Assembly: GCA_023374045.1 (NCBI GenBank)
Contig: CM041776.1
Coordinates: 471,375,375-471,439,374 of the forward strand
Source: Limonium bicolor
Lineage: Eukaryota; Streptophyta; Magnoliopsida; Caryophyllales; Plumbaginaceae
Direction of reading: 5' to 3'
DNA: 64,000 nt
A model generated the notes under the pieces. That model was not told where the DNA came from. It saw only the letters and a program-made list of their open reading frames with translations, and ran no database searches. The position numbers and the translations under genes are program-made. Below, one piece after another: positions 33,871 through 58,114 of the stretch (position 1 is its first letter; every line of letters starts with the position of its first letter).

Positions 33871-36800
33871 TGAAATACCCCGTAATTAAAAATAGTGATT
33901 AATTAGGCTAATAAGTAATTTAGAAGCTTAATTAAGTGTAAATAATCATGAGGGAACAAATCCCGAAGAAAACGGATCCTTAAAATGGATTAAAAACACT
34001 ACCGAACCTTAAAGCACGTTTTTCGAGGAGACCGGGAAAACGTGACTTTAAGCGGGTCAAATAGACTCGTAACAATTTTAGTCAACTAAATAGTCACTAA
34101 TAAATATTAGTGAAGCTTTAGAACCAATAAAATCGATAAAATGAGGAATTAGTATAAACTGTCAAAAACGGGAAGTTGTGGGGTAGAAACATAAATAACC
34201 CAAACTAGTGTGTCCAATATTGTAAATAAAATTTTACAAACCCACATGGGCTGTGTGTGTGTCTGATTTTGAGCCCCACTCACACCCCTTAATTCCCTTC
34301 TTATGAGCAAAAGGACAAAACAAATAAAAATAAAAAAGGTACTACTTTACTCACTCACCACTCTCTCTCCTCTATTCTACTCTCTCACTCACGTACACAT
34401 TCACCCTCCTCCTCTCTATTTTCTTCCTTCTTCAGCCGACAGCAATGGAGAAATGAGAGAACTCACACCATTCTCCACTTCTCTCCTCTTGTTTCTCCCT
34501 TGAATAGCCTCCAAAAATTATACAAATTACACCATTGTCTTCCTCTCATCAAGGAGAGTATTTTCCTCTTTTCAAAATCTGAAAAGGAGCATCTTCATCT
34601 CCATGGGTGTGTAGCATTTGGAGCTTCAAGACCACCATTAGAACCACCTCCTTCTCCTTGTCATCTTGAGGTAAAAATCTTCTTGAAACCCCACCTTTTT
34701 CTAGCCTTTATGGGCAAAACGAATTTAGACTAAACCCCTTGTTGGTTCTCTTGTGCTATAGCCGATTTTGGCATTCTTGAAGGGGTTGAAATATTGTTCT
34801 TGAACCATTCCAAGCTCCACTTACACCCTTGCAAGGTAATGAAATTTCTAAACCCTAAAACTTACATTAAAACTTAAATAATGGTTAGGGTTAGTTTTTA
34901 GTATTGAAATGTATATATGTATGGGCTGTAGTGCTAGAGAATTGAAATTACAAAACCGGTGGGAAGAGGAAGGAAAGAGAGAAGGAAGAAGCAAGAAGAA
35001 GAAGATAAACTAGAAGAAGAAAAAAGGTAATTATGCTTGTCTTTGTGTAGTCATGTATACATGTATGTAACAGATTTTAGTAACCTATTAAATGTGTATT
35101 GAATCTAGTAATGGGTAGTAGTGTAATGTGTAAGAGAATGCAAATGTTTTAAACCCTTAAAAAACATATAAAACTTGTGTAAACATAGTTGGGAATGGGA
35201 TGTTGTGTGTAGGAATTTGTAAGAGTGTTTTGTGTTGGTATTTGTGTATGAGAGTTTGTATATTGGTGATTGATGAAAACAGGTGAGATGGATAAAAATG
35301 TGTGTGAAAAGGATGTGGTGAGAGTATAAAAATGTAGGGGAGACTATGGCAAAATTTACCTAGGAATAGAACACTTAATGAACTAGAACTAGGTGAAAAG
35401 TATAAGTTGTAACAGATTTTGATGGAGATAGTTAGAGGGTAAATTGAGAGAGGTAGTGAATGTATTGTAGTGCATTAGGAGTGTTAGAAATGACATTAGA
35501 AGAGGGAGTTATAGATGGAGAGAGTTAGAGTAGAAATCTGTAGCAAAATGCAACTAGAGAAGAAACTATGTGAGTGTTGAAATGGAATTTGGGAAGAACA
35601 AGAGTGTAAGTTAGTATAGGATTTGTGTAATGAATTAAGGAATGAAATAACATGATTTAGAGTGTTTAATAAGTTTTAAAACATGTGGGATTGAGTGTAG
35701 GAACAATGGGGAAGTAATGGGTAAGATGAGGGACTGAAAACAGAAATAAAAATGCAAATACTAGACTGGACCGACCTTGGGACCGAACTTGCAAGGTCGG
35801 TCGAGCCCAGATTTACAAAGGACGGAAACCTTCTGGAATGGACCGACCTTGGGGACCGAACTTGCAAGGTCGGTCGGCCAGAAAATTTCCCGTCATAAAA
35901 CCTTCTGGAATGGACCGACCTTGGGACCGGACTTGCAAGGTCGGTCGGCCTAAAATTCGCCTGTAATGTAACTTACTGGAATGGACCGACCTTGGGACCG
36001 GACATGCAAGGTCGGTCGACTCCAGAATTTCGAAACCAGAACTCACTGGAATGGACCGACCTTGGGACCGGACTTGGCAAGGTCGGTCGGCCCTGTAATT
36101 TTCCAGCGTATTACCCTACTGACTTCGACCGACCTTGGGTCCGACCCTGGGTAAGGTCGGTTGGGTCAAACAAAAAAAATATAAATAATTATAATAAGTA
36201 TATATATATATACCCACATATACATATGTACATATATGTATAGGTACACCATAGTAAGTAAGGAAATAAACTTAAGTAGAGAAGAGTAAGTAAACAAAGT
36301 GTAAGTACAAGAATTTCAAAGACTTAGTAAGTATGAGTTAGGAAACGTAAGAGTAGTCGAGTTAAGTTAATGATAGTTAGATTAATCATTCGATCGTATG
36401 TATATCATTGGGTTTGATTTGTGAGCACCGAAGGAACGTTGGGATACAAGTACAACGGTGAACGGTATGAATTTCTCATGCCACGTATGCTACCTTGGTT
36501 ACTCTGATTTGTGTGTTGTGTGCTAATTGATCACCAAATAAGATAAATGCACGAATCGGAGTTATCATGCTTACTCGTGAATATGTAGTGTTGTATATTG
36601 ATGTATATTATCTTTAAATCTTAGTTTGTCCAATTCATGAAATGAATGGATGAATATGAGTGTGTGTATGCATGATGTATTGTATTGTGACCGAACATGT
36701 TTGTGATTGGACTTCTAACTTTTTTTTAACAAGCTAACCAATCTAACTTAAATTGGTAATTAAATTGGAATGAGTAGAAGTCCGATATAGTTTTGGCCAC

Positions 36801-37791
36801 GCGTGAGGGTGCAGAGACACAAGAGGTTGGATCCAAGCCCTGACTCTTAAACTGGTCCGCGGCTCAAACCCCTTAAATGGGTAGCATCCCGGATTGGTGA
36901 GTCAAGTAAATCCCGGTGGTGGGACGGTGTAGTCCCCTGGCCGGAGGTCATGCCGACTTAACAAGAGTAAGAGTAAGTAAGTAAGTAAGAATGAGTAAGT
37001 AAGTAAATGAAAGAAAGTAAGTAAAGTAAGAGCAAGTAACGTGTAATGGGTAAAAGAGTAATAAGCATTCCGATTAACCCGGAGGCACAAATTGGCTAAC
37101 CCTTGGAAAGGTAAGTAATGTGTATGCGATTGTATTGCTGTATGAATGGTGAATGGTATTGTGAATGAATGTATGTTGTATGTAAAGCATGTATGTATGT
37201 TAAAAATGAACCGCATGCCTATTTGACCTTAATTAGTCGGCGTGCCCTTGTTAGCACGCGGTATATGCGAAGTTCATGCGCAGCTTTTGCTGAGCCCCTT
37301 GGGGCGATGTTTTTAATATGGATGCAGGTACACGAGAAGGGTGAGGAAGATGGAGTTCTTAGTTTGTCTTCTTTTGATTGTAAACAATGAATTGAATGGT
37401 GTACTAAGTAGTACACGGCTGTAGATTTTGTTAGCCGGTGTACCATGTGGTACACCCATTGGATATGGATAGGATGGAATTGGTATAGATGAGTGGTTGT
37501 AGAAACTCATTAATTTTTGGTAAACTTGGAAGGGATGTAAATTGAATATACTTTGGTACTCGATAATCCATGAATGTAAGTATTCGGTATTTGATATTTG
37601 GTAAGTAATGTGGTAGCTCGGTATACTATGCCATCAGACTGTGACTGTAAGTAAGGTAAGCCTAGCTAGCCGTATGGGCGGTTAGCGGCATTGTACCACC
37701 TGTCGTAGTAAGTAGTAGTCTTCCGCTGTGAACTGATAGAATTAGGGGATAATTGGACGGTAAGCATAGGATTAACGGTAGGGGTGTTACA
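33871..37791 (+). repeat. 5' LTR of element B
   Basis: 3921 bp, TGAAATACC...GGGGTGTTACA, followed by the PBS. It is the inverse of 41477-45461. Contains the palindrome array at 35765-36165, a GTAA microsatellite (36966-37040) and a GAAGAA-rich tract near 34970-35030. Short open frames inside have no homology and are not genes. Confidence 0.9.
35765..36165. repeat. Six-unit ACCGACCTT...AAGGTCGGT palindrome array in B LTR
   Basis: Six units of about 70-77 bp: GGACCGACCTTGGGACCG, then GACTTGCAAGGTCGGTCG, then a variable AT-rich spacer with TGGAATGG. Each forms an 11-bp stem (GACCGACCTTG with CAAGGTCGGTC). GC-rich cores stand out in AT-rich LTR DNA. Confidence 0.92.
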
Positions 37792-37796
37792 AAAAG

Positions 37797-37808
37797 TGGT
37801 ATCAGAGC
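37797..37808 (+). other. Primer-binding site of element B (initiator Met tRNA)
   Basis: TGGTATCAGAGC, five bases after the LTR; the standard Met PBS of chromoviruses. Confidence 0.92.
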
Positions 37809-38003: not shown

Positions 38004-39498
38004 ATGTTAAATATTCAGATGTTAGGAAGAGGTCCAGGTCGCCGAGGGACCAATGACGGACCGGGCGCGCAGACGATAGCAGAGATCGTCGCCGCCACGG
38101 TAGCGCAGATGCTACCACAAGTAATCACTGCGATGCAACAAAACCAGCAGAATCAACAGACACAAGCAGGACCAATCCCTCCCCCTCCACCCAGAGAAGT
38201 GAACTGGGTAAAGGCCATCGCAGATCTCCGTCCTCCATGTTTTAGAGGCGAGAGCGATCCTGCCAAATTGGAAGCTTACATCTCCGAAATGGAGACCGCA
38301 TTCGAAACCCTCGAAGCTCCTGCTGGAGTTCGAGTGAGGTTAGCAGCATACTATCTAAAAGATGCAGCCATGGACTGGTGGAAGCTGGTCAAGAATGAGC
38401 ACGTCAACGACCCCACATTCGATTGGGAGTCCTTTGCATCCCTCCTCCGATCCAAATACTACCCGGAGCACGTGAAAACCAAGAAAAGGCTAGAGCTGGA
38501 CGCCTTGAAAATGACAGACAAGATGTCTGTGGATGAGTACTACCGCACCTTCACTTCTATCCTCCGTCTTCTACCTGATCTAGGATACACTGGCCAGGTG
38601 TTGGTCGATCGCTTCTATGGCGGTCTGAGTCATCGCCTGCGGTACGGTATGGGCTACACACGATTTACCTCCCTTCAGGTAAATATCGGTTAACCCTTAG
38701 TACCATTTCAACTCCTTGGATTCCTTAAATACTTTACCTTTACCTCTATCTTTTAAATAAGAATCCCGGCTAATACCTGAAACTTCAGGAGTGTTATCAC
38801 GCGGCTTCCCGCGTTGAGATCACTTGCCAACTGAGGGATGAAGAAACCGCGCTGAAGTGCAAGGCAAACAGTAAGAACACAAGTGCTGAGGAGCAGAACC
38901 AGGGTAAAAGCTGGAAAAAGAAGAAAGGGAAATTCTTTCACCAAACCTCAAAGAACTTCCCAAGTGAGAGCAGTGCCCATGCTGAGAAGGGCAACCCGGT
39001 TGAGATTCTTCAGCTAGGGTCATCTGCACCAGTGGCTGCGAAGCCACTGAGATCACACTCACCTAAGGGTAAACTTCTAATCCAAATTCATATTTGTATA
39101 AGTACCATATCTAGTATATCTCCGCACAAATGTGCTAATTCTCTAAACCTTAGGTTCTGGCTCCGGTTTCACCAAAAACTTCTCTGACAGCCGCGCTTAT
39201 GTGTGCCGCAAATGCAACCAAGATCATTCCGACAAGGATTGCCAAGGGAGAGAAATCCGGTGCTACAATTGTCAGAAGCCCGGACACCGAGCCAATGTAT
39301 GCCCCGAAAATGCCAAACCAAGAGGGAACTTCCAAAGCTACAAGCAGAGGGAAGGCAAGGAGGTTGCATCTGGCGATGCACCGACCCAGCAGGCACCACA
39401 GGGACAGGGATCCCGGGGTCCTCCGAGGGGCGCACCCCAGAGGCAGTCTGTTTTGCACGTGATTGACCGTGATGGGTCCGGTTCTAAGTCCAGCCCAG
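38004..39498 (+). pseudogene. gag of element B, three exons
   Basis: Exon 1 38004-38678 (ATG 38004, or ATG 38019 directly after ATATTCAG, which could be a leader-intron acceptor) holds the capsid domain (WVKAIADLRPPCFRGESDP, AAYYLKDAAMDWW, LLRSKYYPEHVK, FYGGLSHRLRYGM). Exon 2 38789-39068 is a Lys-rich linker (SWKKKKGKF). Exon 3 39154-39498 has two knuckles: CRKCNQDHSDKDC (C-x2-C-x3-H-x4-C) and CYNCQKPGHRANVC (canonical CCHC). GT-AG introns 38679-38788 (phase 0) and 39069-39153 (phase 1) recur at the same places in element D. The spliced gag has no stop. The element as a whole is broken, so I class it as a relic though gag itself is open. Confidence 0.8.
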
Positions 39499-40534
39499 GT
39501 AATTATCTAAAACCTTGAATCCTTGAGAAGCATGCCTAAGTATTAGAGTTACTGTAAGAATGAATGCATGAGTAAATAATTGAAGCATGTATGAAGCATG
39601 AAATGAAGTAGTTGAAACTAGTACTCACCGTAGATGAAATTCATAACCATAGGAAACTTTAGTATCTACTATCCAATACCTTCGAAACTGAATCAAGAAG
39701 AGACCGACATCACCAATCACTACTACATCAGCGAACAGTGTCAGGTCATCCGACCAGGTATGATTCTATTAAGGGAATACCTGACACCCGAAGCCTAAAT
39801 CTCAATCATCCGACGATGCAACGAGCTAGGAACGGGTCAAGGTGGATTTTATACACCCGAATTCCCCGGTGGAGCGAAGATGAAGCTGAAAATGATGTGC
39901 TTGGGAAAGGACTGGAATCCTTATACCAAGACATACCAAGAGACACGAACACAAGACGGAGCAACGCCACCGACAATACCTCCAGAATTTCAGACACTTG
40001 TGACACAAGCAGTAGAACTTGCACAACAATGCGAATATGATCCGATCCCCGCACTTGAAGCGAACCTCTGTATCGTCAACTTCTATGAGAAAGAAGGATG
40101 ACTTGGGTTACACTAAGACAAGGACGAGACAGCGGAATCTCTTGAACAAGGAATGCCCGTAGTGTCTTGGTCCATTGGTGATGACGCCATCTTTTTGTAT
40201 AGCGAGCAGAAGCGTGTGGACCTCGCAGAGAAATTGGTATTGAGATCAGGAGATGTCCTAATCATGGGTGGAAACTCTAGGATGCTGTATCACGGGATCA
40301 ACAAGATCAAGCTGAATACGGCACCACCGGCAATAATCAATGCCACACACATGAAACCAGGACGCCTGAACCTTACCTTTAGAAAGTATTAAATTCATAG
40401 TATCATGTAATCGATTAGTAACGTGTATTAGAGACACGGTATGTATGATGGTTGGTTTATCAATAAGGAGCAGTGTTCATTTAAAATTTCACTTGTGTCC
40501 ACCATCAATACTTATCCACTTGTGAATCCAATAG
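39499..40534 (+). other. gag-pol intervening segment of B with two alternative acceptors
   Basis: Donor CCAG/GTAATT at 39499 after the first base of a codon. Acceptor 1 CCATAG at 39652 leads into the AlkB frame; acceptor 2 CCAATAG at 40534 leads into the protease frame. Both give a glycine codon across the joint and continue in frame. No stop-free read-through exists between gag and protease, so splicing, or some recoding, would be needed for Gag-Pol. Confidence 0.7.
39653..40392 (+). pseudogene. AlkB-like 2OG-Fe(II) dioxygenase exon of element B
   Basis: About 246 codons, intronless. Resembles plant ALKBH1-type demethylases: RPGMILLREYLT, GGFYTPEF, MMCLGKDWNP, LCIVNFYEKEG, MPVVSWSIGDDAIFLY, SGDVLIMGG, YHGI and GRLNLTFRKY, then TAA. 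Iron ligands are His 40111-40113, Asp 40117-40119 and His 40291-40293; the 2OG-binding Arg is in NLTFR. Three in-frame stops (39796 TAA, 40099 TGA, 40114 TAA) inactivate it; the last lies between the His and Asp ligands. All three fit C-to-T or G-to-A change. Family members oxidatively remove methyl groups from nucleic acids; target here unknown. An ATG at 39635 is also in frame, so a separate start is possible. Confidence 0.88.
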
Positions 40535-41476
40535 GCTGTGGACTCGGTACCGAAGGTAACCTGAGTATCCTCACAGAAGCACAGGACGGCAAAAGCGGCA
40601 CCATCTTAACGGGAACATTCCCAGTGAACGGCATTGATGCCAATGTGTCATTCGACTCCGGCGCCTCTTACACCTTCGTATCACCATCTTTTGTGAAGAG
40701 GTTGAAGCTAGATGCGGATGAGCTACCGAATTTTCTGGTTACTCTCCCATCGAAGGAGCGAGTAAGATGCACCAAGTATTATAAAGCAGCCACGATTGAA
40801 ATCAAAGGCGAATCGTTTCCCATCTCCTTCATCGAGTTTAATGGATTGGGATTCGACTTAATCATCGGAATGAATTGGTTGGAGCTGCACAAGGGTAGAA
40901 TCCTCTGCGCCGAGCATCGATTGCTTCTCAAGAGTCCTTCTAGGGTTACCATATCTTACCGCCAGAGACCGAGAGAGCCTTCGACCACAGTCATCTCCGC
41001 CATGGCTATGTACCGGGAGCTCATAAAGGGCAAAGAAGTGTATTTGTGTTATGTACAAGACCTGAAGCGAGATCTAGAGTTCAGTGAAGATGTACCGATT
41101 GTATCCGAATTCCCTGACGTATTCCCTAAGGAGCTACCCGGCATGCCACCTCAGAGAGCGGTAGAATTTGAAATTGACCTTTTGCTAGGTACCGGTCCCA
41201 TTGCTAGGGCACCGTACCGCATGGCACCTGCTGAAATGACTGAACTGAAAGAACAACTACGTGACTTACTCGACAAAGGGTTTATACGCCCGAGCATATC
41301 ACCCTGGGGAGCACGGTCCTCTTTGTGAAGAAGAAGGGATGGGCCTCCGACTTTGTATTGACTACCGCGAGTTGAATGCGGTCACAGTCAAGAATAAATA
41401 CCCATTGCCACGCATCGACGACCTATTTGATCAGCTGAAAGGAGCGTCAGTCTTCTCCAAGATCGACCTCCGTTTC
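40535..41476 (+). pseudogene. Protease and N-terminal RT of element B
   Basis: Exon start GC/TGTGGACTC continues as ILTGTFPVNGIDANVSFDSG with the retropepsin box FDSGASYTFV, the flap-side GLGFDLIIGMNWL, then the RT N-terminus [22 protein letters not shown] and [13 protein letters not shown] one-base deletion near 41310 and another small indel near 41340 shift frame before [20 protein letters not shown]. The RT is cut at KIDLR by element C. Confidence 0.88.
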
Positions 41477-44400
41477 TGTAACACCCCTACCGTTAATCCT
41501 ATGCTTACAGTCCAATCATCCCTTAATCCTATCAGTTCGCAGCGGAAGACTACTACTACTACGGCGGGGGTGGTACAACGCCGCTAACCGCCCATACGGC
41601 TAGCTAGGCTTACCTTACTTACAGTCACGGTCTGATGGCATAGTATACCGAGCTACTACATTACTTACCAAATACCAAATACCGAATACTTACATTAATG
41701 GATTACCGAGTGCCAAAGTATAATCAATTTACATCCTTTCCAAGTTTACCCAAAAATAATGAGTTTCTACAAGCTACTCATCTATACCCCAATCCAATAC
41801 TTTCACTATCCAAAAGGGTGTACCCCATGGTACACCGGCTAACAAAATCTACAGCCGTGTACTACTTAGTACACCATTCCTAATCCATTGTTCACACACA
41901 AAAAGAAATAGAACTAAGTCTAAGTCTTCAACATCCTCACCCTTCTCGTGTACCTGCATTCATATTAAAAACATCGCCTCAAGGGGCTCAGCAAAATCTG
42001 CGCATGAACTTCGCATATACCGCGTGCTAACAAGGGCACGCCGACTAATTAAGGTCAAATAGGCATGCGGTTCATTTTTAACATACATACATGCTTTGCA
42101 TACAACATACATTCATTCACAATACCATTCACAATCCATACGGCAATACAATCGCATACACATTACTTACCTTCCCAAGGGTTAGCCAAATTGTGCATCC
42201 GGGTTAATCAGAATGCTTATTACTCTTTTACCCATTACACATTGCTTGCTCTCACTTTACTTACTTAATTACTTTCATTTACTTACTTACTCATTCTTAC
42301 TTACTTACTCTTACTCATGTTAAGTCGGTATGACCTCTGGCCCGGGGACTACACCGTCCCACCACCGGGATTTACTTGACTCACCAATCCGGGATGCTAC
42401 CCATTTAAGGGGTTTGGGCCGCGGATCAGTTTAAGTGTCAGGACTTGGATCCAACCTCTTGTGTCTCCACATCCTCACGCGTGGCCGAAACTATATCGGA
42501 CTTCTACTCATTCCAATTTAATTACCAATTTAAGTTAGATTGGTTAGCTTGTTAGGAATCAGTTAGAAGTACAATCACAAACACATTCGGTCACAATACA
42601 ATATATCATACATACACACACTCATATTCATCCATACATTTCATGAATTATACAAACTAGGATTTAAAGATAATATACAACAAGATACAACACTACATGT
42701 TCACAAGTAAGCATGATAACTCTGATTCGTGCATTTATCTTATTTGGTGATCAATTAGCACACAACACACAAATCAGAGTAACCAAGGTAGCATACGGGG
42801 ATGAGAAATTCATACCGTTCACCGTTGTACTTGTATCCCAACTTTCCTTCGGTGCTCACAAATCAAGTCCTATAACATACATGTAATCGAGTGATTAATT
42901 ATCTACAATTAACTTAACTCGTATCCCTATTACTTTCTTAACTCTTACTTACTATGTCTTTACACTTCTCACACTTACACATTACTTACTTACTCTTCAT
43001 TACTTTAAGTTTGTTTCCTTGTTTACAATGATGTACTTACATATATATGTACATATGTACATGTGGGTATACATGTATATATATATACTTATTATAATTA
43101 TTATTATTATTTTTTTTATGACTCGACCGACCTTACCCAGGGTCGGTCCCAAGGTCGGTCGAAGTCAGTAGGGAATTACGCTGGAAAAGTTCAGGGCCGA
43201 CCGACCTTGCAAGTCCGGTCCCAAGGTCGGTCCATTCCAGTGAGTTACTTGACGGAAAATTTTAGCCCGACCGACCTTGCAAGTCCGGTCGCAAGGTCGG
43301 TCCATTCCAGTAAGTTTCATGACGGGAAAATTTTGAGTCGACCGACCTTGCAAGTCCGGTCGCAAGGTCGGTCCATTTCAGTAGGTTTCATGACAAGAAA
43401 ATTTTGAGTCGACCGACCTTGCAAGTCCGGTCGCAAGGTCGGTCAATTCCAGTAGGTTTCATTACGGGAAATTCTTCTGGCCGACCGACCTTGCATGTCC
43501 GGTCCCAAGGTCGGTCCATTCCAGAAGGTTTCCGCCCTTTGTAAATCTGGGCTCGACCGACCTGGCAAGTCCGGTCCCAAGGTCGGTCCGGCCCAGTAAT
43601 TGCATTTTTATTTTTGTTTTCAGTCCCTCTTCTTACCCATTACTTCCCCATTGTTCCTACACCTAATCCCACATGTTTTTACACTAATTAAACCTCCTAA
43701 TACACCCTAGTTCATCCTTTAATTCATCACTCATTCCTATACTAATTTACACACTTGTTTCTAAATTCATTTAAGCACTTACACTAAGTCTTTCTTAGTT
43801 GCATTTGCTACAGATTTTTACTCTAACTCTCTCCATCTAGAGCTCCCTCTTCTAATGTCATTCCTAAAGCTTCTAATGCATTTCACACCTCTCCTAACCT
43901 ACCCACTAACTAACTTAAATCAAAATCTGTTACAAGGGTATATCTTTACCTAGTTTCTAGTTCTTAAGTGTTCTAGTTCTAGGTAAATTTTGCCATAGCC
44001 TCCCCTATATTTATACACTCTCACCACATTGTTTCACACACATAATCATCTATCTCACCTGTTTTCAACAATCACAATATACATAGCTCCCATATACATA
44101 TACCAACACTAAACAATCTTAAAAATTCCTGCACACTACATTCAACTCCCATCTAGGTTTCCACAAGTTTTTAATGTCTTTTAAGGGTTTAAAACATTTG
44201 CATTCTCCTGTACATTACACTACCACTACACTACCATTTTACAATACCCATTTTAAACTTCTAAAATCTGTTACATACATATATACAAGACTACACAAGT
44301 AAGTGTAATTACCTTCTTTCTCTTCTAGTTTTCCTTCTCTCCTTCTTTTCTCTTTCCACCGGTTTTAATAACTCAAATCCTATAACACCACAACCCATAC

Positions 44401-45461
44401 ATACACACCATTTTAATACACTAACCCTTAACCATTTTTTAAAGCTTAATGCATATTTTAGGGTTTAGAAATTCCATTACCTTGCAAGGGTGTAGGTAAT
44501 GCTTGGAACAACTCAAGAAAAATATTTCTCACCCTCCAAGAGTGCCAAAATCGGCTAGAGTACAAAGGAAACCAAACAAGGTTTTAGCTTAATTTTCGTT
44601 TTGCCCATAAGGCTAGAAAAATAGTGAGGTTTCAAGAACATTTTTACTCAACTGAACGAGGAGATGAAGGTGGTTGTAATGGTGGTCTTGAAGCTCCAAA
44701 TGCTACACACCCATGGATATGAAAGTTGTTGTGTTCGAATTTTGAAAGGAGGGGAATACTCTCCTTGATGAGAGGAAGACAATGGTGGTATTTTTATAAT
44801 TTTTGGAGAAGGTTTGGACACTCAACAAGAGGAGAGAAGTGAGTGTTTTTGTGGGTTCTCTCAAATCTCCATAGCCATCGGTAGGAGGAAGAAGAAGAGA
44901 ATAGAGAGTGAGGGGGAAGGGGGTGTTGTTACGTGAGTGAAGAGAATGGGGTAGGAGAGAGAATAGGTGAGTGAGGTAGTAAAGTGAGTTTACTTTATGC
45001 TTTTTATTTATTTTGTCCTTTTGCACATAAGAGGGAAATTAAGGGGTGTGAGTGGGGGCTTAAAATCGGACACACACACAGCCCACATGGGTTTGTAAAA
45101 TTCTATTTACAATATTGGACACACTAGTTTGGGTGATTTATGTTTCTACCCCACAACTTCCCGTTTTTGACAGTTTTTACTATTTTCTCGTTTTATTGAT
45201 TTTATTGGTTCTAAAGCTTCACTAATATTTATTAATGATTATTTAGTTGACCAAAATTGTTACGAGTCTATTTGACCCGCTTAAAGTCACGTTTTCCTGG
45301 TTTCCTTGAAAAACGTGCTTTAAAGTTCATTAATGTTTTTAATCCGTTTTAAGGATCCGTTTTCTTCGGGATTTGTTCCCTCATGATTATTTATGCATAA
45401 TTAAGCCTCTAAATTACTTATTAGCCTAATTAATCACTATTTTTAATTACGGGGTATTTCA
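41477..45461 (-). repeat. 3' LTR of element C
   Basis: 3985 bp, plus strand TGTAACACCCC...GGGGTATTTCA; reverse complement of the B LTR with moderate divergence. Carries a TTAC microsatellite (42240-42320) and a seven-unit version of the palindrome array (43120-43595). Confidence 0.9.
43120..43595. repeat. Seven-unit palindrome array in C LTR
   Basis: Same GACCGACCTTGCAAGTCCGG / CGCAAGGTCGGTC unit as in B but seven copies (about 43125, 43197, 43269, 43338, 43410, 43483 and 43555), so copy number varies within the family. Confidence 0.9.
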
Positions 45462-45921: not shown

Positions 45922-48108
45922 CTAGTCTATGAATAACTGTGGGTACTTAGCCTTCATGGCATCTTCCAACTCCCATGTCACTTCTTCGACATCATGGTTT
46001 GACCATAGGACCTTCACCATCCGTATAGACTTATGGCGAGTGTCTTTGGTCTTCCTATCAAGGATTCTCACTGGGGTTTCGACATATCTCATGGTCGGCT
46101 CAATGGATAGTCTCTCGGGCTCTAATACATGAGAAGGATCAGCGATATACTTCTTGAGTTGTGACAAATGAAAGACATCATGTACACGCCCCAAGTCCAC
46201 AGGTAATGCTAACCTGTAGGCTACGGATCCAACTCTTTCGGTAATAGTGTACGGCCCTACAAACTTTGGGCTTAGCTTGCCCTTCTGACCAAAACGGAAT
46301 ACACCCTTCATAGGTGAAACTCGTAAGAACACTTGGTCACCCACGGCGAACTCAAGGTCGCGTCGTCTCACATCCACATAGGATTTCTGTCTATCTTGGG
46401 CTGCCTTCATATTGGCTCGGATTTGTTGCACTTCCGCTTGGACTTGTTCTAGATACTCCGGTCCTATGATGACCGCTTCACTTGACTCATCCCAACACAA
46501 AGGTGTACGGCAGGGTCTACCGTATAGGGCTTGGAAATGTGACATCTTAATTGAAGCATGGTAGCTATTATTGTAAGAAAATTCGATAAGATGAAGCTTA
46601 TCTAACCAACTTCCCTGAAAGTCTAAGGCACATGCCTGAAGCATGTCCTTCAGTGTCTGGATGGTCCTTTCTGTCTGACCGTCGGTCTGAGGATGGAAGG
46701 CGGTACTCAGCTTCAATTCTGTACCCAACGCTTCCCGCGTAGCTTTCCAGTATCTCGAAAGAAATCTGGTGTTGCAGTCAGATACTATGGTTTTCGGGAC
46801 TCCATGATGTCTGATAATATCCTTGTCGAATAGCTTTGCGAGCTTCACTAGCTTCCAGGTGTCCTTCATCGGTATGAATCTGGCCACCTTGGTAAGGCGA
46901 TTGACTACAACCCAGATCATGTTGAGTCCTCCCCTGGTAGGTGGGAGTCCTACAACAAAATCCGTGGAGATATCATGGAACTTCCACTCCGGAACTGGCA
47001 TCGATTGTACCATTCCGCCCGGTCTACGATGTTCAAATTTTACCTTCTGGCATGTTAAGCATCTCAATACATATTCCGTCACATCCAACTTCATTCCAGA
47101 CCACCAGAAGTACCTCTTCATGTGTTTGTACATCTTGGAGGCTCCCGGATGGACTGACAATGTGGAACTGTGTGACTCTCGCAGGATGCGATTCCTTAGC
47201 TCAGCATTGCTTCGAGGGACACATAGCCTGCCATTCAACAGAATCAAACCATCTTCATGTAGCTTAAAATCATACTTCTTCTTCTCAAATGTGCCATTTT
47301 CGATCTTTTATCTGATTTCGGTTAGGTAAGGGTCGCTCAACTGAGCATCACGCACCTCGTCAACCAAGCTAGAAGAAGCGAGTAACGAATGGAGCGAGTG
47401 TGCTCGACGACTCAGGGCGTCGGCTACAATGTTTGTCTTCCCTTCCTTATACTGTAGGTCGATGTCGTAGTCTGAGAGAAACTCCATCAATCTTCTCTGT
47501 CTCAAATTCAGTTCTTTCTGTGTGAATACATACTGTAAGCTCTTATGGTCGGAGTAGATGGTGATGCTTACCCCATAGAGATAGTGTCGCCATATCTTCA
47601 AAGCGAAGACAATGGCTCCTAGCTCTAAGTCATGTGTCGGGTAATTCTCCTCATGCTTTTTCAGCTGGCGGGAGGCATAAGCCACAACCTTGCCATGCTG
47701 CATGAGTACGCATCCCATTCCCTTGCCTGATGCATCACAATATACCTCAAATCCCTCTGTGCCCTCTGGAAGAGTAAGGATGGGCGCTGAGGTCAATGAG
47801 TCTCTTAGGCTCTGAAATGATAATTCACACTCGTCTGTCCATACAAACGGTGCATCTTTCTTCATCAGTGTAGTCATGGGCTTAGCGACTTTTGAGAAGT
47901 CCTTTACAAATCTCCGATAGTAACCGGCTAGACCAAGAAAGCTCATAATATCAGTAACAGTCTTAGGTCTAGGCCATGATCGTACAGCTTCTATCTTAGA
48001 AGGGTCAACTGAGATACCAGCGCTCGAGATGACATGACCGAGGAATGATACCCGATCTAGCAAGAACTCGCATTTGGAGAACTTTGCATATAGCTGGTTC
48101 TCGCGCAG
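45922..48108 (-). pseudogene. pol of element C: RT end, RNase H, integrase, chromodomain
   Basis: RT thumb/RNase H ([74 protein letters not shown]) up to 47311, then a TAA at 47308-47310 where element D has Gln. Integrase follows: HHCC (ESHSSTLSVHPG...CLTCQ), DDE residues in STDFVVGLP, VSDCNTRF and QTERTIQ, the C-terminal GPYTITERVG region, and a chromodomain (PVRILDRK...IRMVKVLWSNHDVEEVTWELE). Chromodomains direct integration toward heterochromatin, matching the nested setting. One stop and the D insertion inactivate this copy. Confidence 0.9.
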
Positions 48109-51100
48109 TGTAACACCCCTACTAATTCGGCTCCTAATAATCCTATAAATGTCGTGCACAATAATATCTCGCAGCGGTAAAATAATAACTGTCGCCCTAA
48201 TGGTGTCACTGTTATCACACGCCCATACGGGTGATAACGATTTACCTGATAATCAACTCACGAAACGTATTCCCGCAGTGACCACAAGAGATAGATAGCA
48301 GTACTTAAACAATTTAAAACAAATCTAACACCAACAATTATTACAGACCGTGAGCATCTAAACCAAATACACCTCGGTTAAACAGCCCGAGTCCAAAATA
48401 ACCTGAGTATCACACCGTACCAAGTCTAAACCAACAGTAATACAATAATCACGCCTCGCTGCGACCCACCAGCTAATCACCTGAAATAAAGATGGTTTGT
48501 GGTATGGAATCAGCCCCTGCTGAGTATGTCATCACATGCCCCGTCATGCCCCCAAAAACCCCTCAATTATTTGGTCGAGAGCATGAGGTTCATTACATGC
48601 AATACCGTTTAATATATAAACTGTAAAATAAATAACAGTAATATCCAAACAACAATACAACCATCAATACACATAGTATACCACAAGTATAATCAATGAA
48701 CAACAAGTGAAACAACGAGGATGATAAACAATTATTAATTCTCATCCATGGTATAGAAACCAATATCGTTCGCCACTGTATAATTCTCAAATGTATTATT
48801 GTTCAGTTATACCTAGTGACAATGTCTCATTAAAACGACATGTCTCTAGTTACCCATATATTATGGCGGGTCACCCTTGGCAGTAGCCACTCCAACGGTA
48901 GAGTCTCCGACCAACGAGCCATTCTAGCTCACGGGAAATTTTCTTGATACTTACGGACCCGTACGCGGACATCCTGGTATCGTTTTTGTGATCACAGCGC
49001 GCACCAAGAGCCACATCCTCTTGGCTTTACTTCCATTCTTTAGTTACTTACTTATACCATCGCATCGCATTACCAAATTTTCTAACACAGCAGACTAAGG
49101 TCATTAGTCCAATCCGGAGTCTGTAAACTCGGGATCCAGTGTTAGGTACGAGAGCGGCGTATAGAAAGGCCAATGCTCCGTATGAAAGTCTTGGATAATA
49201 TATATGTATTATTATCCTAGTGCTACAACGTTTTTCTGACGTTCCTTATTTTCATATAAGATAGCACCATAGCCGCTAGTTCGTTTTATATATAGGTTCA
49301 TATATACGAACCAATACTGTTAACTCAACAACAGTAAATAATAAGCAGCTATAAATATACAGTTCATGCATATTAAATATCACATTCAGACAAACAATCT
49401 TATCACAGATCAGACAGAAGTCTGAACTGAGGAAGCCCTCAGAGACAATCAGAGACACGTAACAACATACCGTTCACCCTGATGTATTACGGTGGAGTAT
49501 GAACCAGCAAGTTCCTATGCTCCTTGTGTCACCTCTAACAGTCTAAGCAATACATAATGCTACTGATTAGCACACTGTATAACAACACAATCCTACGGTA
49601 CTTCGTACCGTCACTATTAACTCCCGGTTAACCCCCCGTTATTTACTGTCAATGTTTGTCGGGTTTTTGGTTCAACTCGAGATTGGAAAAAAAGTGTTAT
49701 ATTACATGCGTAGTCTTGTTTGTATATTAATACAGTTACTGTTGATCTTGTCATCGCATGTGGTTTAACATACCCTTGTATGTCGTATAGTCTGTTTCAT
49801 TATTGCATGTGTGATTCTATGTCATGTACACATCGCACCTTAGTATTTATTTTCTAAGGTTTGTCTCTTTTCTTCTTTTTTTTTTTATTTCAATGTGGTA
49901 TAATTCATTTGTAACTATACTTTTAATTATTCAAAATCCTTATTATTCCATGTATACTTCTAACATTAGCATTTTGATATCTAATGTTTATAATTCTTTT
50001 CTCCTTATCTATTATCATTTTGATTATGATAATTTATAATTATTGAACCAAATCATATTTTCTACACCATTACATATATTTATTTATACATGTGTGTTAT
50101 AGAACTTATTTATTATATGGTAAGTCTTATAATCTATATTCATCTTTTTAATGAATAACTCTTATATTATAAATGTTATAATTCTTAAACATTAAAAACC
50201 ATATATAAATTCCATTTAAAAAATGTTATTATTTTCGAATAGCACCTATGTCCTTAAATATTTACAAAACCCACCACTTAATTATGTAATGTTACATTAT
50301 TGTTATATAATTATAACATATCTTATGACATTTAAACCATTTAAAACAATTATAACCTATAGTCATATTTGTTTATAAAATACCAAATGACCCCTTATAT
50401 TTTCGGTTTTCAAAAACCACTAAACTTCTATAAATCACAAATTCTCCTCTTTATAACATATAGTTTTCTAATATCATCAAGACTATATATTATACATATG
50501 TCTTCGCAAAACCTTATATATAATTCCAAAAATCACCAAACTATACCAAAAGGTTAAATATTATTCCTAACCTTATACTTCCTTTAAATTTCGGTTTTCA
50601 CCCCTTTATTACCCATTGTAACAATGTTATAAAATACCTTATATATACTGTACAATTCATATGAACTCCAAATTTAACCAAATAAACTTCTAAAAATTTC
50701 TAATAACTTAAGGACTTTACTAAACTCTATTTAGCACCCTTAAGTTTTCGGTATTTACATTACTACCCCAAGTCTTATAAATCTTTTACAATTTAATAAG
50801 TATCTTATTATAAGGTAGTATTTTAATTTCTTAATTTTCTAAATTTGGTCAAAGTCTCCTATATAGTCAACTTTGACTCCTAATACCAAAGGGGAACCAA
50901 TTTTTCGGTAATTACAAATAATAACCTATACTTTTCTATTTTTACAATTTTGACCCAAAACTTTATAAAATGTTATAATTTTTATTAAATTCATTTAAAA
51001 ACCCTAAATTGTTCTAAATTAAGCCCACGGCTTTCTAAATTCCTAATAATTACGAATTGGCCCCAATTTTAATTATAAGCATAAATAAAACTAAATAAGC

Positions 51101-52815
51101 TTATAAACTTAAATAAAATGGCCTAATGACATGGCCTTATTACAACCTTGAACTTGCAAAATAAATTACACAATAAATGTCTCAAAATATAGCATATGTA
51201 TTCGGCCTCACTTAGATTTAATTATTTTTCCACATAATGTCATAATTTGACCATTATGTTAATTAAATCTCTTAAATGACTAGCTTAATTTATCTTAGCC
51301 ATTTTTTTCCATTTTTAGGTCAATATGACCTATATATATATATATATATATATTTTCACTCTCGGCCATAAATATATATATGCTTAAAAATTACAAAAAT
51401 CATAAGTTTAAGGTGTTTATACCTTGATTATGCCTTGTATGCTCTCGGCCACTTGTAGGAAAAATCACCACATGATTTAGACATGTTTAATAACACAAAA
51501 ACAAGATATGGTTACACTCCAAGCTTGAGCTTAACCATAAGGAATAATTAATGTAAGATTTAAGGCAAAAATCACCTTAAAAATGCAAGGGAAGTTCTAA
51601 GTGGTTTCGACCTGAACCAAACACACCACAAGGTGTTAGATCCACCATATTGACATAGGAAATAGTTAGATCTCGAAATACTACCTTGTTATTAGGTTTC
51701 ACCTTGGAAAAATGCCTTAAAAGAGAGTATTTCTCTTGGATCTTGGTCACCCTTGCTCCAAATGGCTAACCAACAGATTCCACATGAAAAGGAGAAGAAG
51801 ATGAGGCTATGACCAAAGTTTCTCAGCCAAACTCGAAGGGAATCAAAAGTTATGAGCTTAAAGCACATTTTTACCTTAAAATGTAGATTTGAACAACCTT
51901 GGTCCCTCTACTGGTCTCAACCGAGTTTAGCTCTTGTTCTAACCTTAGAACACTGAGAATAAGCCATAGGAATTGATGAGCCACGAAATCTAGGTGTTGG
52001 TGGTGAGAAGATGAAGAAAAAGAGCTAAAAATGACATTAAAACACTTACATTAGGAGCTTAGGAGCTAGGTTTGCCTTCCATGCTCAAGAACAGACCTTG
52101 AGAGCTTCAATGGGAGGGAGGAGCTCGGCTGGGATGAGTGGGAACGGACAAGGAGGAAGGAAAGAATGGGTAAGGTTTGAAATAATTGAAAAGTAAACTT
52201 AATTTTCAAAAGTAAATGGTATTAGGTATAGTTTGTCCCATAATGATTATAAGCTGTCTCCTCCCTCTTGCCAGCCGATTTCCAAGGGGGTAAATGGGTC
52301 ATTTACTGCCCATTGGCCATACTTGGTCATTTTGACTCATGCGGGCCCCACGTCGGGGTTTTATTAATATTTTAATATTAAATTTGTGAAAATCTGTAAA
52401 TTTGGAATTAAATTCCTAATATGATATGTATGATAAAATATCATATTTAAGGGTAATTATAATTTCTAAGCCCATTAAAAATCAATTTAAAAGGCAATCT
52501 CACAAAAAACGTGCTTTAAGGTGTTTTAGTGCACGTTTTGTGTCACTGGGTGCTCCTTAGCTTAGTTCTCCTTGAGAACGGTTTTGTTGTGTTCCTTACT
52601 TCACTATAATACTTAGGAATCCACTTTGGATCCTATTTGAGGTCATACAATCTTTATGATGTCTTAAAGCACATTTTTGGCTTTACCGATCTTAAGGCGT
52701 GTTTTGCCTTGTTGAGATCTTTTAGATTGTTCCCCAATTTTATTTAGATGTTTAATAACCATCTTAGATCATTGATAGATCATTTAATTATATTTTAAAG
52801 ATTAGGGGTATTTCA
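48109..52815 (-). repeat. 3' LTR of element D
   Basis: 4707 bp, plus strand TGTAACACCCCTAC...GGGGTATTTCA. Very AT-rich, with a TA microsatellite near 51333-51352. Short ORFs inside are not genes. No GC palindrome array like that of B/C was seen. Confidence 0.9.
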
Positions 52816-53245: not shown

Positions 53246-56200
53246 CTACTCGAAGAGTGCTGGGTACTTCGCTCTCATGGAGTCCTCTAACTCCCATGTA
53301 GCCTCCTCCACCTCATGGTTCGACCAGAGAACCTTGACCATGCTAACGGTCTTGTTCCTAGTCTGCCTCGTCTTCGTATCGAGAATGCGGAGTGGTACTT
53401 CCTCATATCGTAGAGCGGGGTCCAACTCTAAAGTCTCTGGCTGCAAAACGTGCGATGGATGGGGCACATACTTCTTCAACTGTGAAACATGAAAGACGTC
53501 GTGCACCCTCCCGAGCTCTGCTGGTAATTCCAGCCTGTAGGCTAATGGGCCCACTCGCTCCCTAATCGCATAAGGTCCAACATACTTTGGGCTCAACTTG
53601 CCCTTCTGCCCAAACCGGAATATTCCCTTCATGGGTGACACTCTGAGGAATACCATGTCGTCGGTAGTGAACTCAATGTCTCTCCTCTTGGTGTCTGCAT
53701 TTGCTTTCTGCCGGTCCTGAGCTGCCCTCATGTTCTTCCTAATCTGTAGGACATCCTCCTTAATCTGCTCTAGGTACTCAGGTCCTAGGAGCGTAGTCTC
53801 GCTGGCCTCATCCCAGCATAAAGGAGTCCTACACGGTTGACCATAAAGTGCCTGAAATGGTGGCATCTGTATCGAGAAGTGGTAGCTGTTGTTGTAGGCG
53901 AACTCTATCAAGTGTAGATGCTCTAACCAGCTCCCCTGAAAATCTAAGGCACATGCTCTCAGCATGTCCTCCAGTGTCTGGATGGTCCTCTCACTCTGAC
54001 CGTCGGTCTGTGGATGGAACGCCGTACTAAGCTTCAACTTTGTACCCAAGGCTTCCTGAACCTGTCCCCAGAATCTGGACAAAAATCGAGGGTCCCTATC
54101 AGAAACAATAGTCTTTGGCACACCATGGTGCCGGATCACCTCCTTCTGGAACAAGTCCGCTAACTTCGGGACGTTCCAGGTATCCTTCATAGCAACAAAT
54201 TTGCCACCTTCGTCAGACGGTCCACAATGACCCAAATCGTGTTCAGTCCTCCCTTAGTCGGTGGGAGACCGACAACGAAATCCATCGATGTCCTCGAACT
54301 TCCAACAAGGAATAGGCATAGACTGCACTAAACCTCCGGGTCTCCTATGCTCAAACTTAACCTTCTGACAGGTCAAGCATCTAGCCATACTCAGCTACAT
54401 CCTTCTTCATCCCGCTCCACCAGAAATGAACCTTCAAATCCTTATACATCTTCGACGAACCAGGGTGGACGGATAAGGACGAGCAATGAGCCTCCTGGAG
54501 TATCTTCTCCTTCAGATCAGGAGACGACTCCGGAATACACAAACGGCCCTTCAGTCGAATCATGCCATCATCGCACAGTTCGAAGTCATATTTCAGCCTC
54601 TCAAAACAACCATCTATCATTTTCTGCCTGATACTCTGCATATAGTGATCACTCTCCTGTGCAGCTCGTATCTCATCAATCATACTGCTGTTTGCTAATA
54701 AGGTGAACAATGAATGAGCTCTGCGGCTCAGGGCATCAGCTACCACATTCGCTTTGCCCTCTTTGTACCTCAGGTCTATATCGTAGTCCTTCAAGAACTC
54801 GACCCATCTTCTCTGTCGCATGTTCAGCTCCTTCTGAGAGAAGAGATGCTGTAGACTCTTGTGATCAGAGTAGATAGTGACTGTCACACCATACAAATAA
54901 TGTCGCCAGATCTTCAAAGCGAAGACTACTGCGCCTAACTCAAGGTCATGTGTGGGGTAATTCACCTCATGCTTCTTCAGCTGTCGGGATGCGTAAGCTA
55001 CTACCTTCCCGTGCTGCATAAGCACACAGCCTAGACCGGTTCCAGAGGCATCACAGTATACCTCGAACCCATCAGTGCCCTCAGGGATAGTAAGAACGGG
55101 CGCTGATGTCAGGAGATCCTTCAGCGTCTGAAAGGACTGCTCACACTCTGCAGACCATAAGAACTGGGATTCCTTCTTCATTAGATTAGTCATCGGTTTG
55201 GCTTCCTTGGAGAAGTCCTTCACAACTTCGATAATACCCCCAAACCCAGAAAGCTACGGACGTCTGTGACTGTCTTCGGCCTTGGCCAACTCTTCACTGC
55301 CTCAATCTTAGCAGGATCTACAGATATGCCGCTAGCTGATATAATGTGTCCTAGAAATGACACGCTGTCTAACCAAACTCACACTTAGAGAGTTTGGCAT
55401 ACAGCTGGTTCACTCTCATAATATTCAACACCTGTCTCAAATGGAACTCATGATCTTCCTTGGTTTTTGAATAGATCAGAATATCGTCGATGAAGACTAC
55501 AACTGAACTATCAAGATGCTCTCTAAAAAGTCGGTTCATCAAGTCCATGAATATGGCTGGCGCATTCGTCAGTCCGAATGGCATAACGGTGAACTCGTAG
55601 TGTCCATACCGTGTCCTGAAAGCTGTCTTCTCAATGTCACCCTCTGCAATCCTAATCTGATGGTAGCCAGATCTGAGATCTATCTTCGAGAACACACTGG
55701 CTCCTCTCAGCTGATCAAACAAATCATCTATCCGTGGTAATGGATACTTGTTCTTGACTGTAACCGCATTAAGCTCGCGGTAGTCGATGCAGAGTCGCAT
55801 ACTGCCGTCCTTTTTCTTGACGAACAGCACTGGAGCACCCCAAGGAGAAACACTAGGTCGAATGAATCCCTTGTCGAGGAGGTCCTCCAGCTGTAGTTTC
55901 AGCTCCCTCATCTCAGCCGGTGCCATACGGTAGGGTGCCTTAGCAATGGGGCCCGTACCTGGCAACAAGTCGACGTCGAACTCAACCTCGCGCACAGGCG
56001 GCATGCCTGGCAGCTCATCAGGAAATAAGTCGGGAAAATCTACCACGACTGGAATGTCTACGTCCGCCACGTCGCTCTGTCTCGTGTCCTGTACATAACA
56101 GAGGAAGGCTTGTTGGCCCTTCCTAACATCCTTCATCAGGGATAATGCTGACACGATCTTGACAGTCGGCTCTCTCCTCACACTGCGGTATGACACTGTC

Positions 56201-56684
56201 CTGCCGCTCGGCCCCTTCAGTAATAGTCGATGCTCTGCACAATGAAGGCGGCCTCTATGTTTCTGTAGCCAATCCATGCCCACTATGATGTCAAAACCCA
56301 AGTTTCTGAATTCGATCAGATCAATGGGAAAGGTCTCAGTCATAATGCTGATCTCTAACCCTGTATACTGTCTGGTGCATCCTACTTTCTCCTTCGAAGG
56401 AAGGGTGACTGAAAAGTCTGAAAGCTGTTCGGGGGTGGCTCCCAGCTTCTTAGCAAATGCCGAGGAAATAAAAGAATGCGAAGCCCCTGAGTCGAACAAT
56501 ACGGTAGCACTAATGCCATCAACAAGAAAGGTACCTGAGATTACCTCTCGTATTAGCATCGAGTCCCAACGAATCACTAATTTACTGTTGTTTGTGATTG
56601 TCATACCTGTGATGACATTACCAGACTCCTTGGCTTGCGCCATGTCTAGGATGCAGATGGTACCCTCCTTTCCATTACTATAGC
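53246..56684 (-). pseudogene. Protease, RT, RNase H, integrase and chromodomain of element D
   Basis: Exon begins at 56684 after CTTCAG. Protease box [14 protein letters not shown] with [45 protein letters not shown] and the active-site [10 protein letters not shown]; RNase [16 protein letters not shown] and [11 protein letters not shown]; integrase HHCC, SDRDPRF and QSERTIQ; chromodomain with MVKVLWSNHEVEEATWELED. Frameshifts lie at about 55225-55370 (after CEFG) and 54235-54380 (around the first integrase Asp). MAQAKES at 56643 is an internal Met; the frame is open from the splice acceptor. Confidence 0.9.
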
Positions 56685-58030: not shown

Positions 58031-58114
58031 CTATTATCATGTCACACTCAGGTTAGTACAAGGATGGTAATGGTAGTGTAATACTCAATTTATTCACAAG
58101 GTTAGATCGCTTAC

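What the first reader, a model, noticed from the sequence alone, without database searches (positions are those of the whole stretch)
39653..40392. AlkB-like demethylase domain carried by an LTR retrotransposon (element B)
An intronless frame between gag and protease carries the full 2OG-Fe(II) AlkB core (GGFYTPEF, MMCLGKDW, HxD, VSWSIGDDA, YHG, GRLNLTFR), closest by motif to plant ALKBH1-type proteins. Ty3/gypsy elements do not normally encode this. Known context: some plant RNA viruses carry AlkB domains, and Arabidopsis ALKBH9B is reported to support mobilisation of the ONSEN retrotransposon by removing m6A. A retroelement with its own AlkB could protect its RNA or DNA from methylation. That role is inference. 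The lack of introns suggests capture of a spliced host transcript.
Basis: partly seen in the sequence, partly recalled or inferred. Interest (0 to 1): 0.95.

Follow-up and report, generated by a model that had tools for sequence, protein, structure and literature searches.

The report
Jumping gene carrying its own AlkB enzyme
A family of plant LTR retrotransposons has captured a DNA/RNA-demethylase-like gene (AlkB, ALKBH1 type) and appears to carry it as an optional exon between its coat-protein and replication genes; one orchid retrotransposon lineage was already known to have done something similar with a different AlkB gene.

Summary
Confirmed and extended. Window 39653-40392 encodes an AlkB domain (PF13532, E 2.7e-43; rice ALKBH1, E 2.6e-70), broken here by three stops. 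A second element on the minus strand (D, 56806-57543) has it in the same place, between gag zinc knuckle and protease, with one frameshift. Relatives with the whole catalytic core in one frame exist in public contigs (P0001, P0002); all seven retroelement-type rows form one clade (100/98), beside, not inside, 45 angiosperm ALKBH1C/D-like rows. AlkB diverged between B and D under constraint like the protease's (pN/pS 0.38 vs 0.34). Gag is cut by AT-rich GT..AG gaps at matching positions and phases. The last gag donor joins in frame either to the AlkB exon or to the protease, suggesting that splicing chooses Gag-AlkB or Gag-Pol (inferred; no transcript seen, and one search found no fusion protein). 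AlkB in Ty3/gypsy is not new: orchid Ogre-type elements carry an ALKBH5-type m6A demethylase (PMC9289625). New here: another retroelement lineage (probably chromovirus), another AlkB subfamily, another gene plan. Substrate, species and copy number are unknown.

The parts
33871..37791 (+). 5' LTR of element B (TGAAATACCCC...GGGGTGTTACA)
   Evidence: ends read; inverted match to the 3' LTR of element C, 82.7% and 89.1% identity in two stretches
37797..37808 (+). primer binding site TGGTATCAGAGC (tRNA-iMet type; label recalled)
38004..38678 (+). gag exon 1 (capsid)
   Evidence: PF03732 E 1.7e-16, PF19259 2e-12; borders
38679..38788 (+). intron-like gap 1, GT..AG, 34.5% GC, phase 0
38789..39068 (+). 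gag exon 2
39069..39153 (+). intron-like gap 3, GT..AG, 30.6% GC, phase 1
39154..39498 (+). gag exon 3 with CCHC zinc knuckle; ends at the shared splice donor
   Evidence: zf-CCHC E 3.4e-6
39499..39652 (+). intron-like gap 4, GT..AG, 32.5% GC, phase 1
39653..40392 (+). AlkB (2OG-Fe(II) dioxygenase) exon of element B, three in-frame stops before its terminal stop
   Evidence: PF13532 E 2.7e-43; 5xeg E 2.6e-70; stops
40393..40534 (+). AT-rich spacer (33.8% GC) ending in AG: acceptor in phase with the donor at 39498, so 39499-40534 can act as one gag-pol intron holding AlkB
40535..41476 (+). protease and start of RT of element B, cut off by insertion of element C
   Evidence: RVP_2 E 1.6e-24; the RT start has no Pfam hit of its own here and rests on its DNA match to D's RT, 41110-41470,
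41477..45461 (-). 3' LTR of element C (same family as B), inserted in B
45925..48108 (-). RNase H, integrase and chromodomain-like end of element C; the rest of C lies beyond D
   Evidence: Chromo E 7.4e-4, below Pfam's cut-off
48109..52815 (-). 3' LTR of element D, preceded by purine tract AAGGGGGGTAGAC
   Evidence: 98.5% identical to the visible part of its 5' LTR
53249..54253 (-). integrase and chromodomain-like end of element D
   Evidence: SH3_Tf2-1 2.4e-25, Chromo 0.0018 below cut-off
54384..55253 (-). RNase H and integrase zinc domain of element D
55372..56684 (-). protease-RT frame of element D, starting at an acceptor in phase with the donor at 57674
   Evidence: RVP_2 1.1e-28, RVT_1 3.9e-35
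56806..57543 (-). AlkB exon of element D, one frameshift near 57105; HxD, H, R..R present
   Evidence: PF13532 8.4e-12 for the first half
57544..57673 (-). intron-like gap 4 of D, 36.2% GC, phase 1
57674..58030 (-). zinc-knuckle exon of D (one in-frame stop); CCHC read by eye, not put to Pfam
58031..58114 (-). intron-like gap 3 of D
58115..58239 (-). gag exon 2b of D
58240..58331 (-). intron-like gap 2 of D (absent from B at the same residues)
58332..58454 (-). gag exon 2a of D (frame disturbed)
58455..58532 (-). intron-like gap 1 of D
58533..58900 (-). rest of gag exon 1 (capsid) of D; an earlier part is at 60905-61033, split off by an insertion
   Evidence: tblastn with B gag, 28% identity, E 4e-36
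61404..64000 (-). 5' LTR of element D, cut by the window end; PBS TGGTATCAGAGC at 61399-61388

Best explanation
This is a lineage of plant Ty3/gypsy LTR retrotransposons with an integrase-chromodomain-like end that captured, once, the catalytic part of a plant ALKBH1C/D-type gene and kept it as an alternative terminal exon between gag and protease. SHOWN: the domain's identity, the same place in two divergent elements, one clade of retroelement-type AlkBs, conserved catalytic residues, amino-acid constraint. INFERRED from sequence: gag is spliced, and the last gag donor is joined either to the AlkB acceptor, giving Gag-AlkB that ends at AlkB's own stop, or to the protease acceptor, giving Gag-Pol with AlkB removed as intron. 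INFERRED from family knowledge: the Gag-AlkB protein enters the virus-like particle through its Gag part and there removes methyl groups (6mA/m6A, m1A or m3C) from the element's RNA or cDNA, shielding it from host marking or alkylation block. The two copies in the window are broken; uninterrupted relatives of the domain exist elsewhere.
For: PF13532 148.9 bits and OsALKBH1 E 2.6e-70. Model of the relative P0002: mean pLDDT 89.5, best solved match OsALKBH1, 51% identity, TM 0.90-0.91 to the target. Same order gag-zinc knuckle-AlkB-protease in B and D. Tree: 7 of 7 retroelement-type rows one clade, 100/98. HxD, H and RxxxxxR in all 5 rows that cover all these sites, counting B with a stop at x; P0003 (ends before RxxxxxR) and P0157 (covers none of the sites) are partial. 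pN/pS for AlkB 0.38 (bootstrap 0.31-0.47), protease region 0.34 (0.28-0.41). Seven intron-like gaps with 30.6-38.5% GC against 45.0-64.4% in exons; three of them at the same residues and phases in B and D; the B gag is stop-free once its gaps are skipped. Both acceptors, AlkB and protease, are phase 1 to the same donor in both elements. In D no in-frame ATG lies between the preceding stop and the AlkB exon, which argues against a free-standing ORF.
Against: No RNA evidence: the profile search with a gag-AlkB query listed no protein whose best local match spans both parts (0 of 45 hits, coverage at most 54% of the query), though that search only reaches relatives sharing short words. Frame compatibility alone is weak: 35 of 496 GT-AG pairs in B and 20 of 668 in D give an open join. 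The gaps are hardly less alike between B and D (44-53% of aligned bases) than the zinc-knuckle exon (49%) or protease (55.5%); AlkB is 59%. The D donor of gap 4 (GTTAGC) is a poor plant donor (recalled consensus). Only two elements were read at DNA level; the 'retroelement' status of P0001, P0002, P0003, P0005 and P0157 rests on the clade and uninterrupted frames, not on their contigs, which could not be opened. Constraint between B and D would also appear if both were captured separately from a constrained host gene, but the single clade speaks against that.
Confidence: 0.55

Rival explanations
1. AlkB is a separate open reading frame of the element, translated on its own (internal start or reinitiation), and acts as a free demethylase like the orchid ORF2 protein; the intron-like gaps are just untranslated spacers.
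For: In B an in-frame ATG lies 19 nt before the exon (39634); the predicted protein P0002 begins with a Met upstream of the domain; the orchid elements use a separate ORF (PMC9289625).
Against: D has no in-frame ATG between the preceding stop and the exon; the predicted P0001 begins only inside the domain; acceptor position and phase are kept although the ATG is not.
Confidence: 0.25
2. A passenger: a host ALKBH1 transcript was picked up once and drifted along without benefit to the element.
For: Both copies in the window are broken; B keeps a stop-free gag while AlkB has three stops.
Against: Amino-acid constraint equal to the protease's over a divergence at which silent sites are saturated; catalytic residues kept in every row that covers them, apart from the stop at x in B; uninterrupted relatives.
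Confidence: 0.1
3. The enzyme acts on host molecules (host mRNA, tRNA or DNA 6mA) to weaken silencing, not on the element's own nucleic acids.
For: The nearest characterised relative, OsALKBH1, is proposed to remove 6mA from genomic DNA (PMC7758401 passage); poplar authors suggest a chloroplast/tRNA role for ALKBH1D (PMC9530910 passage).
Against: The join to Gag, if real, would direct it to the particle; nothing here tests targets.
Confidence: 0.2
4. Two separate chance insertions of an ALKBH1 retrocopy into two elements.
For: AlkB genes have entered mobile genomes more than once (orchid Ogre-type elements, RNA viruses; PMC9289625 Discussion).
Against: Same place, same acceptor phase, exon lengths 740 and 738 nt and one clade, 100/98.
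Confidence: 0.03

Closest known systems
Phalaenopsis Gypsy_Pa_2799 elements with paALKBH5-like ORF2 (PMC9289625)
   Same: Ty3/gypsy LTR retrotransposon of a plant with a captured AlkB domain that keeps its cofactor-binding residues.
   Different: Those are Ogre/Tat elements with tRNA-Arg PBS, one gag-pol ORF and a separate 565-aa ORF2 whose AlkB is ALKBH5/9B/10B-type. Here: chromodomain-like end, iMet-type PBS, ALKBH1-type AlkB between zinc knuckle and protease, intron-like gaps in gag. Their screen of 121 angiosperm genomes reported the 2-ODD domain only in two Phalaenopsis species.
Plant ALKBH1C/ALKBH1D genes; OsALKBH1 (PDB 5xeg, 5xoi)
   Same: Same fold and catalytic core, about 50% identity; the captured part begins near the host's PFDIC motif.
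   Different: The host N-terminal region is missing from the exon; the retroelement rows have their own fixed residues and fall outside the sampled angiosperm host clade.
Ogre retrotransposon intron (PMC6317226 and PMC12786077 passages)
   Same: A plant Ty3/gypsy element in which splicing of part of the transcripts sets the polyprotein made.
   Different: [quoted passage not shown] here several gaps within gag plus an alternative exon. Splicing is shown for Ogre, not here.
AlkB domains of plant RNA viruses (Alpha- and Betaflexiviridae, Closteroviridae)
   Same: A mobile genome carrying AlkB (PMC9289625 Discussion).
   Different: Fold matches are distant (12-21% identity in the 50 viral models listed); several of those listed are replicase or methyltransferase/helicase polyproteins.

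Membership tests
AlkB / 2OG-Fe(II) oxygenase superfamily (PF13532) | Profile match above Pfam's curated cut-off | tested here: met
   B 148.9 bits, D first half 46.1 bits, P0001, P0002, P0003, P0005 127-158 bits; cut-off 31.2; P0157 lists no Pfam domain
AlkB / 2OG-Fe(II) oxygenase superfamily (PF13532) | HxD...H iron ligands and RxxxxxR 2OG-binding residues | tested here: met
   All 5 of 7 retroelement-type rows that cover all the sites (B with a stop at x)
AlkB / 2OG-Fe(II) oxygenase superfamily (PF13532) | Double-stranded beta-helix fold | tested here: met
   AlphaFold2 model of P0002, pLDDT 89.5, matches OsALKBH1 and E. coli AlkB; the window copies were not folded
AlkB / 2OG-Fe(II) oxygenase superfamily (PF13532) | Oxidative demethylation activity | not testable with these tools
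   needs purified protein
Plant ALKBH1C/D subfamily | Closer to plant ALKBH1 than to other ALKBH subfamilies | tested here: met
   By solved structures: OsALKBH1 51% identity, mammalian ALKBH1 about 20%, ABH2 16-17%, ALKBH5 17%, ALKBH6 15%; plant ALKBH8, 9 and 10 were not compared
Plant ALKBH1C/D subfamily | Nested among host proteins by descent | tested here: inconclusive
   Sister to all 45 sampled angiosperm hosts (host clade 97/90); nesting with eudicots, rice, Caryophyllales or lamiids not rejected, p-AU 0.15-0.37
Ty3/gypsy chromovirus | PR-RT-RH-INT order with LTRs | tested here: met
   read from D
Ty3/gypsy chromovirus | Chromodomain after integrase | tested here: inconclusive
   Chromo matches at E 7.4e-4 (C) and 0.0018 (D), below Pfam's cut-off of 25.1 bits
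Tekay/Del clade of chromoviruses | RT/RH/INT cluster with Tekay in a tree | not tested
   no reference elements at hand; resemblance of the integrase end is recalled only
Phalaenopsis Gypsy_Pa_2799 (Ogre/Tat) elements | ALKBH5-type AlkB in a separate ORF | tested here: not met
   ALKBH1-type, placed between zinc knuckle and protease
Phalaenopsis Gypsy_Pa_2799 (Ogre/Tat) elements | tRNA-Arg primer binding site | tested here: not met
   PBS reads TGGTATCAGAGC in B and D; its iMet label is recalled
Intron-bearing retrotransposon (Ogre-like expression) | Spliced transcripts | not testable with these tools
   GT..AG gaps, phase, composition and conservation of position only

The most novel reading that the evidence does not exclude
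An ancient retroelement lineage runs a splicing switch, Gag-AlkB or Gag-Pol from one donor, so that a captured DNA/RNA demethylase is built into its own particle and cleans the packaged RNA or the nascent cDNA; the capture predates, or came from outside, the sampled angiosperm ALKBH1 diversity.
Probability: 0.3. Interest if true: 0.88.

Novelty: new variant of a known kind. Interest (0 to 1): 0.66.

Why it matters
The orchid case was a single observation. A second lineage with a different AlkB subfamily would make AlkB capture a repeated solution of plant retrotransposons and point to nucleic-acid methylation or alkylation as a general restraint on them. The gene plan also offers a concrete, testable route (splicing to Gag) by which a retroelement could take an accessory enzyme into its particle, and raises the question whether the target is RNA (m6A, m1A, m3C) or the cDNA (6mA), since OsALKBH1 is proposed to act on DNA.

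Tried and rejected
Own-genome search for PF13532 (genome search) was tried 11 times and never answered, so host species, copy number and intact copies in the same genome are unknown. Scans of viral contigs for P0001 and P0002 and of prokaryote genome contigs for P0002 gave no relative. The profile search for a gag-AlkB fusion protein listed none. Constrained-tree tests to name the donor group rejected none of the four placements. Diagnostic residues (8 positions, 15 outgroup and bacterial rows) pull both ways: the retroelement state is the commoner one at 5 of 8 positions (once by only 2 to 1), the host state at 3 of 8, so I claim no date for the capture. Considered and rejected: chance similarity (E-values), separate insertions (one clade, same place), membership of the orchid family (subfamily and PBS differ). 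A donor-acceptor frame count showed that frame compatibility alone is weak support for splicing, and pairwise identities do not set gaps apart from exons; I lean on neither.

Full report
OBSERVATION. The + strand frame 39653-40392 holds the motifs in the finding. Read with X at its three in-frame stops it matches Pfam 2OG-FeII_Oxy_2 over the whole profile at 148.9 bits (E 2.7e-43, cut-off 31.2) and, in the PDB, rice ALKBH1 5xeg (E 2.6e-70), E. coli AlkB (best about 2e-20) and mammalian ALKBH1 (about 1e-11).

SURROUNDINGS. The frame lies in a + strand LTR element (B): 5' LTR 33871-37791, PBS TGGTATCAGAGC, gag capsid (PF03732 1.7e-16), CCHC zinc knuckle (3.4e-6), AlkB, aspartic protease (RVP_2 1.6e-24) and the start of RT, the last known only from its DNA match to D. 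B is cut in RT by the 3' LTR (41477-45461) of a minus-strand element C of the same family (LTR identity 82.7% and 89.1% in two stretches), and C is cut by a third element, D, on the minus strand (3' LTR 48109-52815; 5' LTR from 61404 past the window end; 98.5% identity over 2,607 aligned columns). D's coding part runs gag (28% identical to B's, E 4e-36), zinc knuckle (read by eye), AlkB, protease, RT, RNase H, integrase, chromodomain-like end. So AlkB occurs in two elements of different families at the same place. D's AlkB has one frameshift near 57105 and its gag is split by an insertion. The chromodomain matches of C (7.4e-4) and D (0.0018) are below Pfam's cut-off; 'chromovirus' is therefore likely, and 'Tekay/Del' only a recalled resemblance.

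INTRON-LIKE GAPS. The gag of B becomes stop-free if two stretches, 38679-38788 and 39069-39153, are skipped; both begin GT and end AG. D has gaps at the same two residue positions in the same phases (58532-58455, 58114-58031), and another (58331-58240) where B has continuous coding. The zinc-knuckle exon ends with a GT donor after 39498 in B and after 57674 in D; from it, the AlkB exon (39653; 57543) and the protease frame (40535; 56684) each begin after an AG in phase 1. The seven gaps have 30.6-38.5% GC, the two spacers between AlkB and protease 33.8 and 29.5%, the exons 45.0-64.4%. B also has an in-frame ATG just before the AlkB exon, D has none. I infer a spliced gag with AlkB as an alternative terminal exon. 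The controls are sobering: an open join is given by 35 of 496 GT-AG pairs in B and 20 of 668 in D, and the gaps are 44-53% alike between B and D, hardly less than the zinc-knuckle exon (49%) or the protease (55.5%). The argument rests on position, phase and base composition agreeing in two elements.

RELATIVES. A search of the protein collection with the B domain gave 34 hits; the first three and the fifth are frames from unnamed contigs: P0001 (69% identity), P0002 (58%), P0003 (69%), P0005 (66%); the fourth, and best named one, is Ipomoea nil P0004 (51%). P0002 spans the whole exon, P0001 the core from its first Met, P0003 and P0005 are partial. A second search, with residues 205-436 of P0004, gave 761 proteins, 120 listed; the named ones are nearly all flowering-plant proteins, several called ALKBH1C or ALKBH1D. 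A third, with a gag-AlkB profile, gave 45 hits, among them a fifth relative (P0157, 90 residues) and none whose best match spans gag and AlkB. P0002 also aligns with D at the start of the exon.

TREE. 59 rows (7 retroelement-type; 45 hosts: 42 of the 120 listed, two, and rice 5xeg; 7 outgroup): the retroelement rows form one clade (100/98), the hosts another (97/90), outgroup 90/86; the bootstrap had not settled, long branches were flagged, and P0157 fills only 31% of columns. Holding the retroelement rows with eudicots, rice, Caryophyllales or lamiids was not rejected (p-AU 0.318, 0.367, 0.169, 0.146). So: probably one capture, donor unresolved.

SELECTION. Between B and D, 239 AlkB codons: pS 0.78 (saturated), pN 0.30, ratio 0.38 (bootstrap 0.31-0.47); 257 protease-region codons: ratio 0.34 (0.28-0.41). 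The iron ligands and RxxxxxR are present in all five of seven retroelement-type rows that cover all of them (B has a stop between the H and D; P0003 has the ligands and ends earlier; P0157 covers none); of 45 hosts, all have the ligands and 44 both arginines. The domain was kept for its protein much as the protease was.

STRUCTURE. P0002 folds with mean pLDDT 89.5 (49-row alignment); best solved matches are the two OsALKBH1 entries (51% identity, TM to target 0.90-0.91), then E. coli AlkB (28-30%); mammalian ALKBH1 18-22%, ABH2 16-17%, zebrafish ALKBH5 17%. Viral AlkB models are distant (12-21% in the 50 listed).

PRIOR WORK. PMC9289625 (abstract, parts 1-4 of 7 and the Discussion read) reports Ty3/gypsy Ogre-type elements in Phalaenopsis with a separate ALKBH5-like ORF active on m6A RNA in vitro; in its screen of 121 angiosperm assemblies the domain turned up in two Phalaenopsis species only. 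A 2025 review (PMC12786077, passages) names that case and says plant LTR elements generally lack introns, with Ogre and EVADE as exceptions. In Neumann et al. (PMC6317226, passages) both occurrences of 'intron' concern Ogre. Searches for another AlkB-bearing LTR element showed none in titles and abstracts; of the papers listed there I opened only PMC9289625 and PMC12786077, and the library holds open-licence PubMed Central without preprints. OsALKBH1 as proposed 6mA demethylase: PMC7758401, passage. ALKBH1D role: PMC9530910, passage.

MECHANISM AND CONFIDENCE. AlkB identity about 0.98; belongs to the element family about 0.95; single capture about 0.85; spliced Gag-AlkB about 0.65; acts on the element's own RNA or cDNA about 0.45. 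The presence of intron-like gaps in DNA copies means the copied RNA kept them, as it must if full-length RNA is the genome; the exact absence of gap 2 in B could be a spliced RNA that was reverse-transcribed, or a gain in D. That is inference.

VERDICT. Real, and a new variant of a known kind: a second type of AlkB-bearing Ty3/gypsy element with an unusual proposed expression plan. Species, abundance, transcripts and enzyme activity remain open.

Noticed in passing
58240-58331 (minus) and 38789-39068: An intron-like gap in the gag of D is exactly absent from B at the same Lys-rich residues: an intron gain, or loss through reverse transcription of a spliced RNA.
   Followed up: partly
58890-60904: About 2 kb inserted in D's gag; 59172-59680 is 73% identical to part of the repeat pair at 19276-20974 / 23549-25248, so it may hold a related LTR.
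   Followed up: no
19276-20974 and 23549-25248: Direct repeats 98.4% identical, 4.27 kb apart, likely LTRs of a young short element, with a 156-bp tandem duplication at 22704-23015.
   Followed up: no
31648-32430 and 27340-27751: Tandem arrays with periods of about 110 and 31 bp.
   Followed up: no
35759-36170 and 43116-43606: Tandem repeats of about 72 bp inside the LTRs of B and C.
   Followed up: no
8044-10786 (minus): Frames that look like pieces of a laccase (multicopper oxidase) gene; recognised by eye, not tested.
   Followed up: no
552-4616 (minus): Another gypsy-type pol with long open frames (by eye); no AlkB match there in the tblastn.
   Followed up: no
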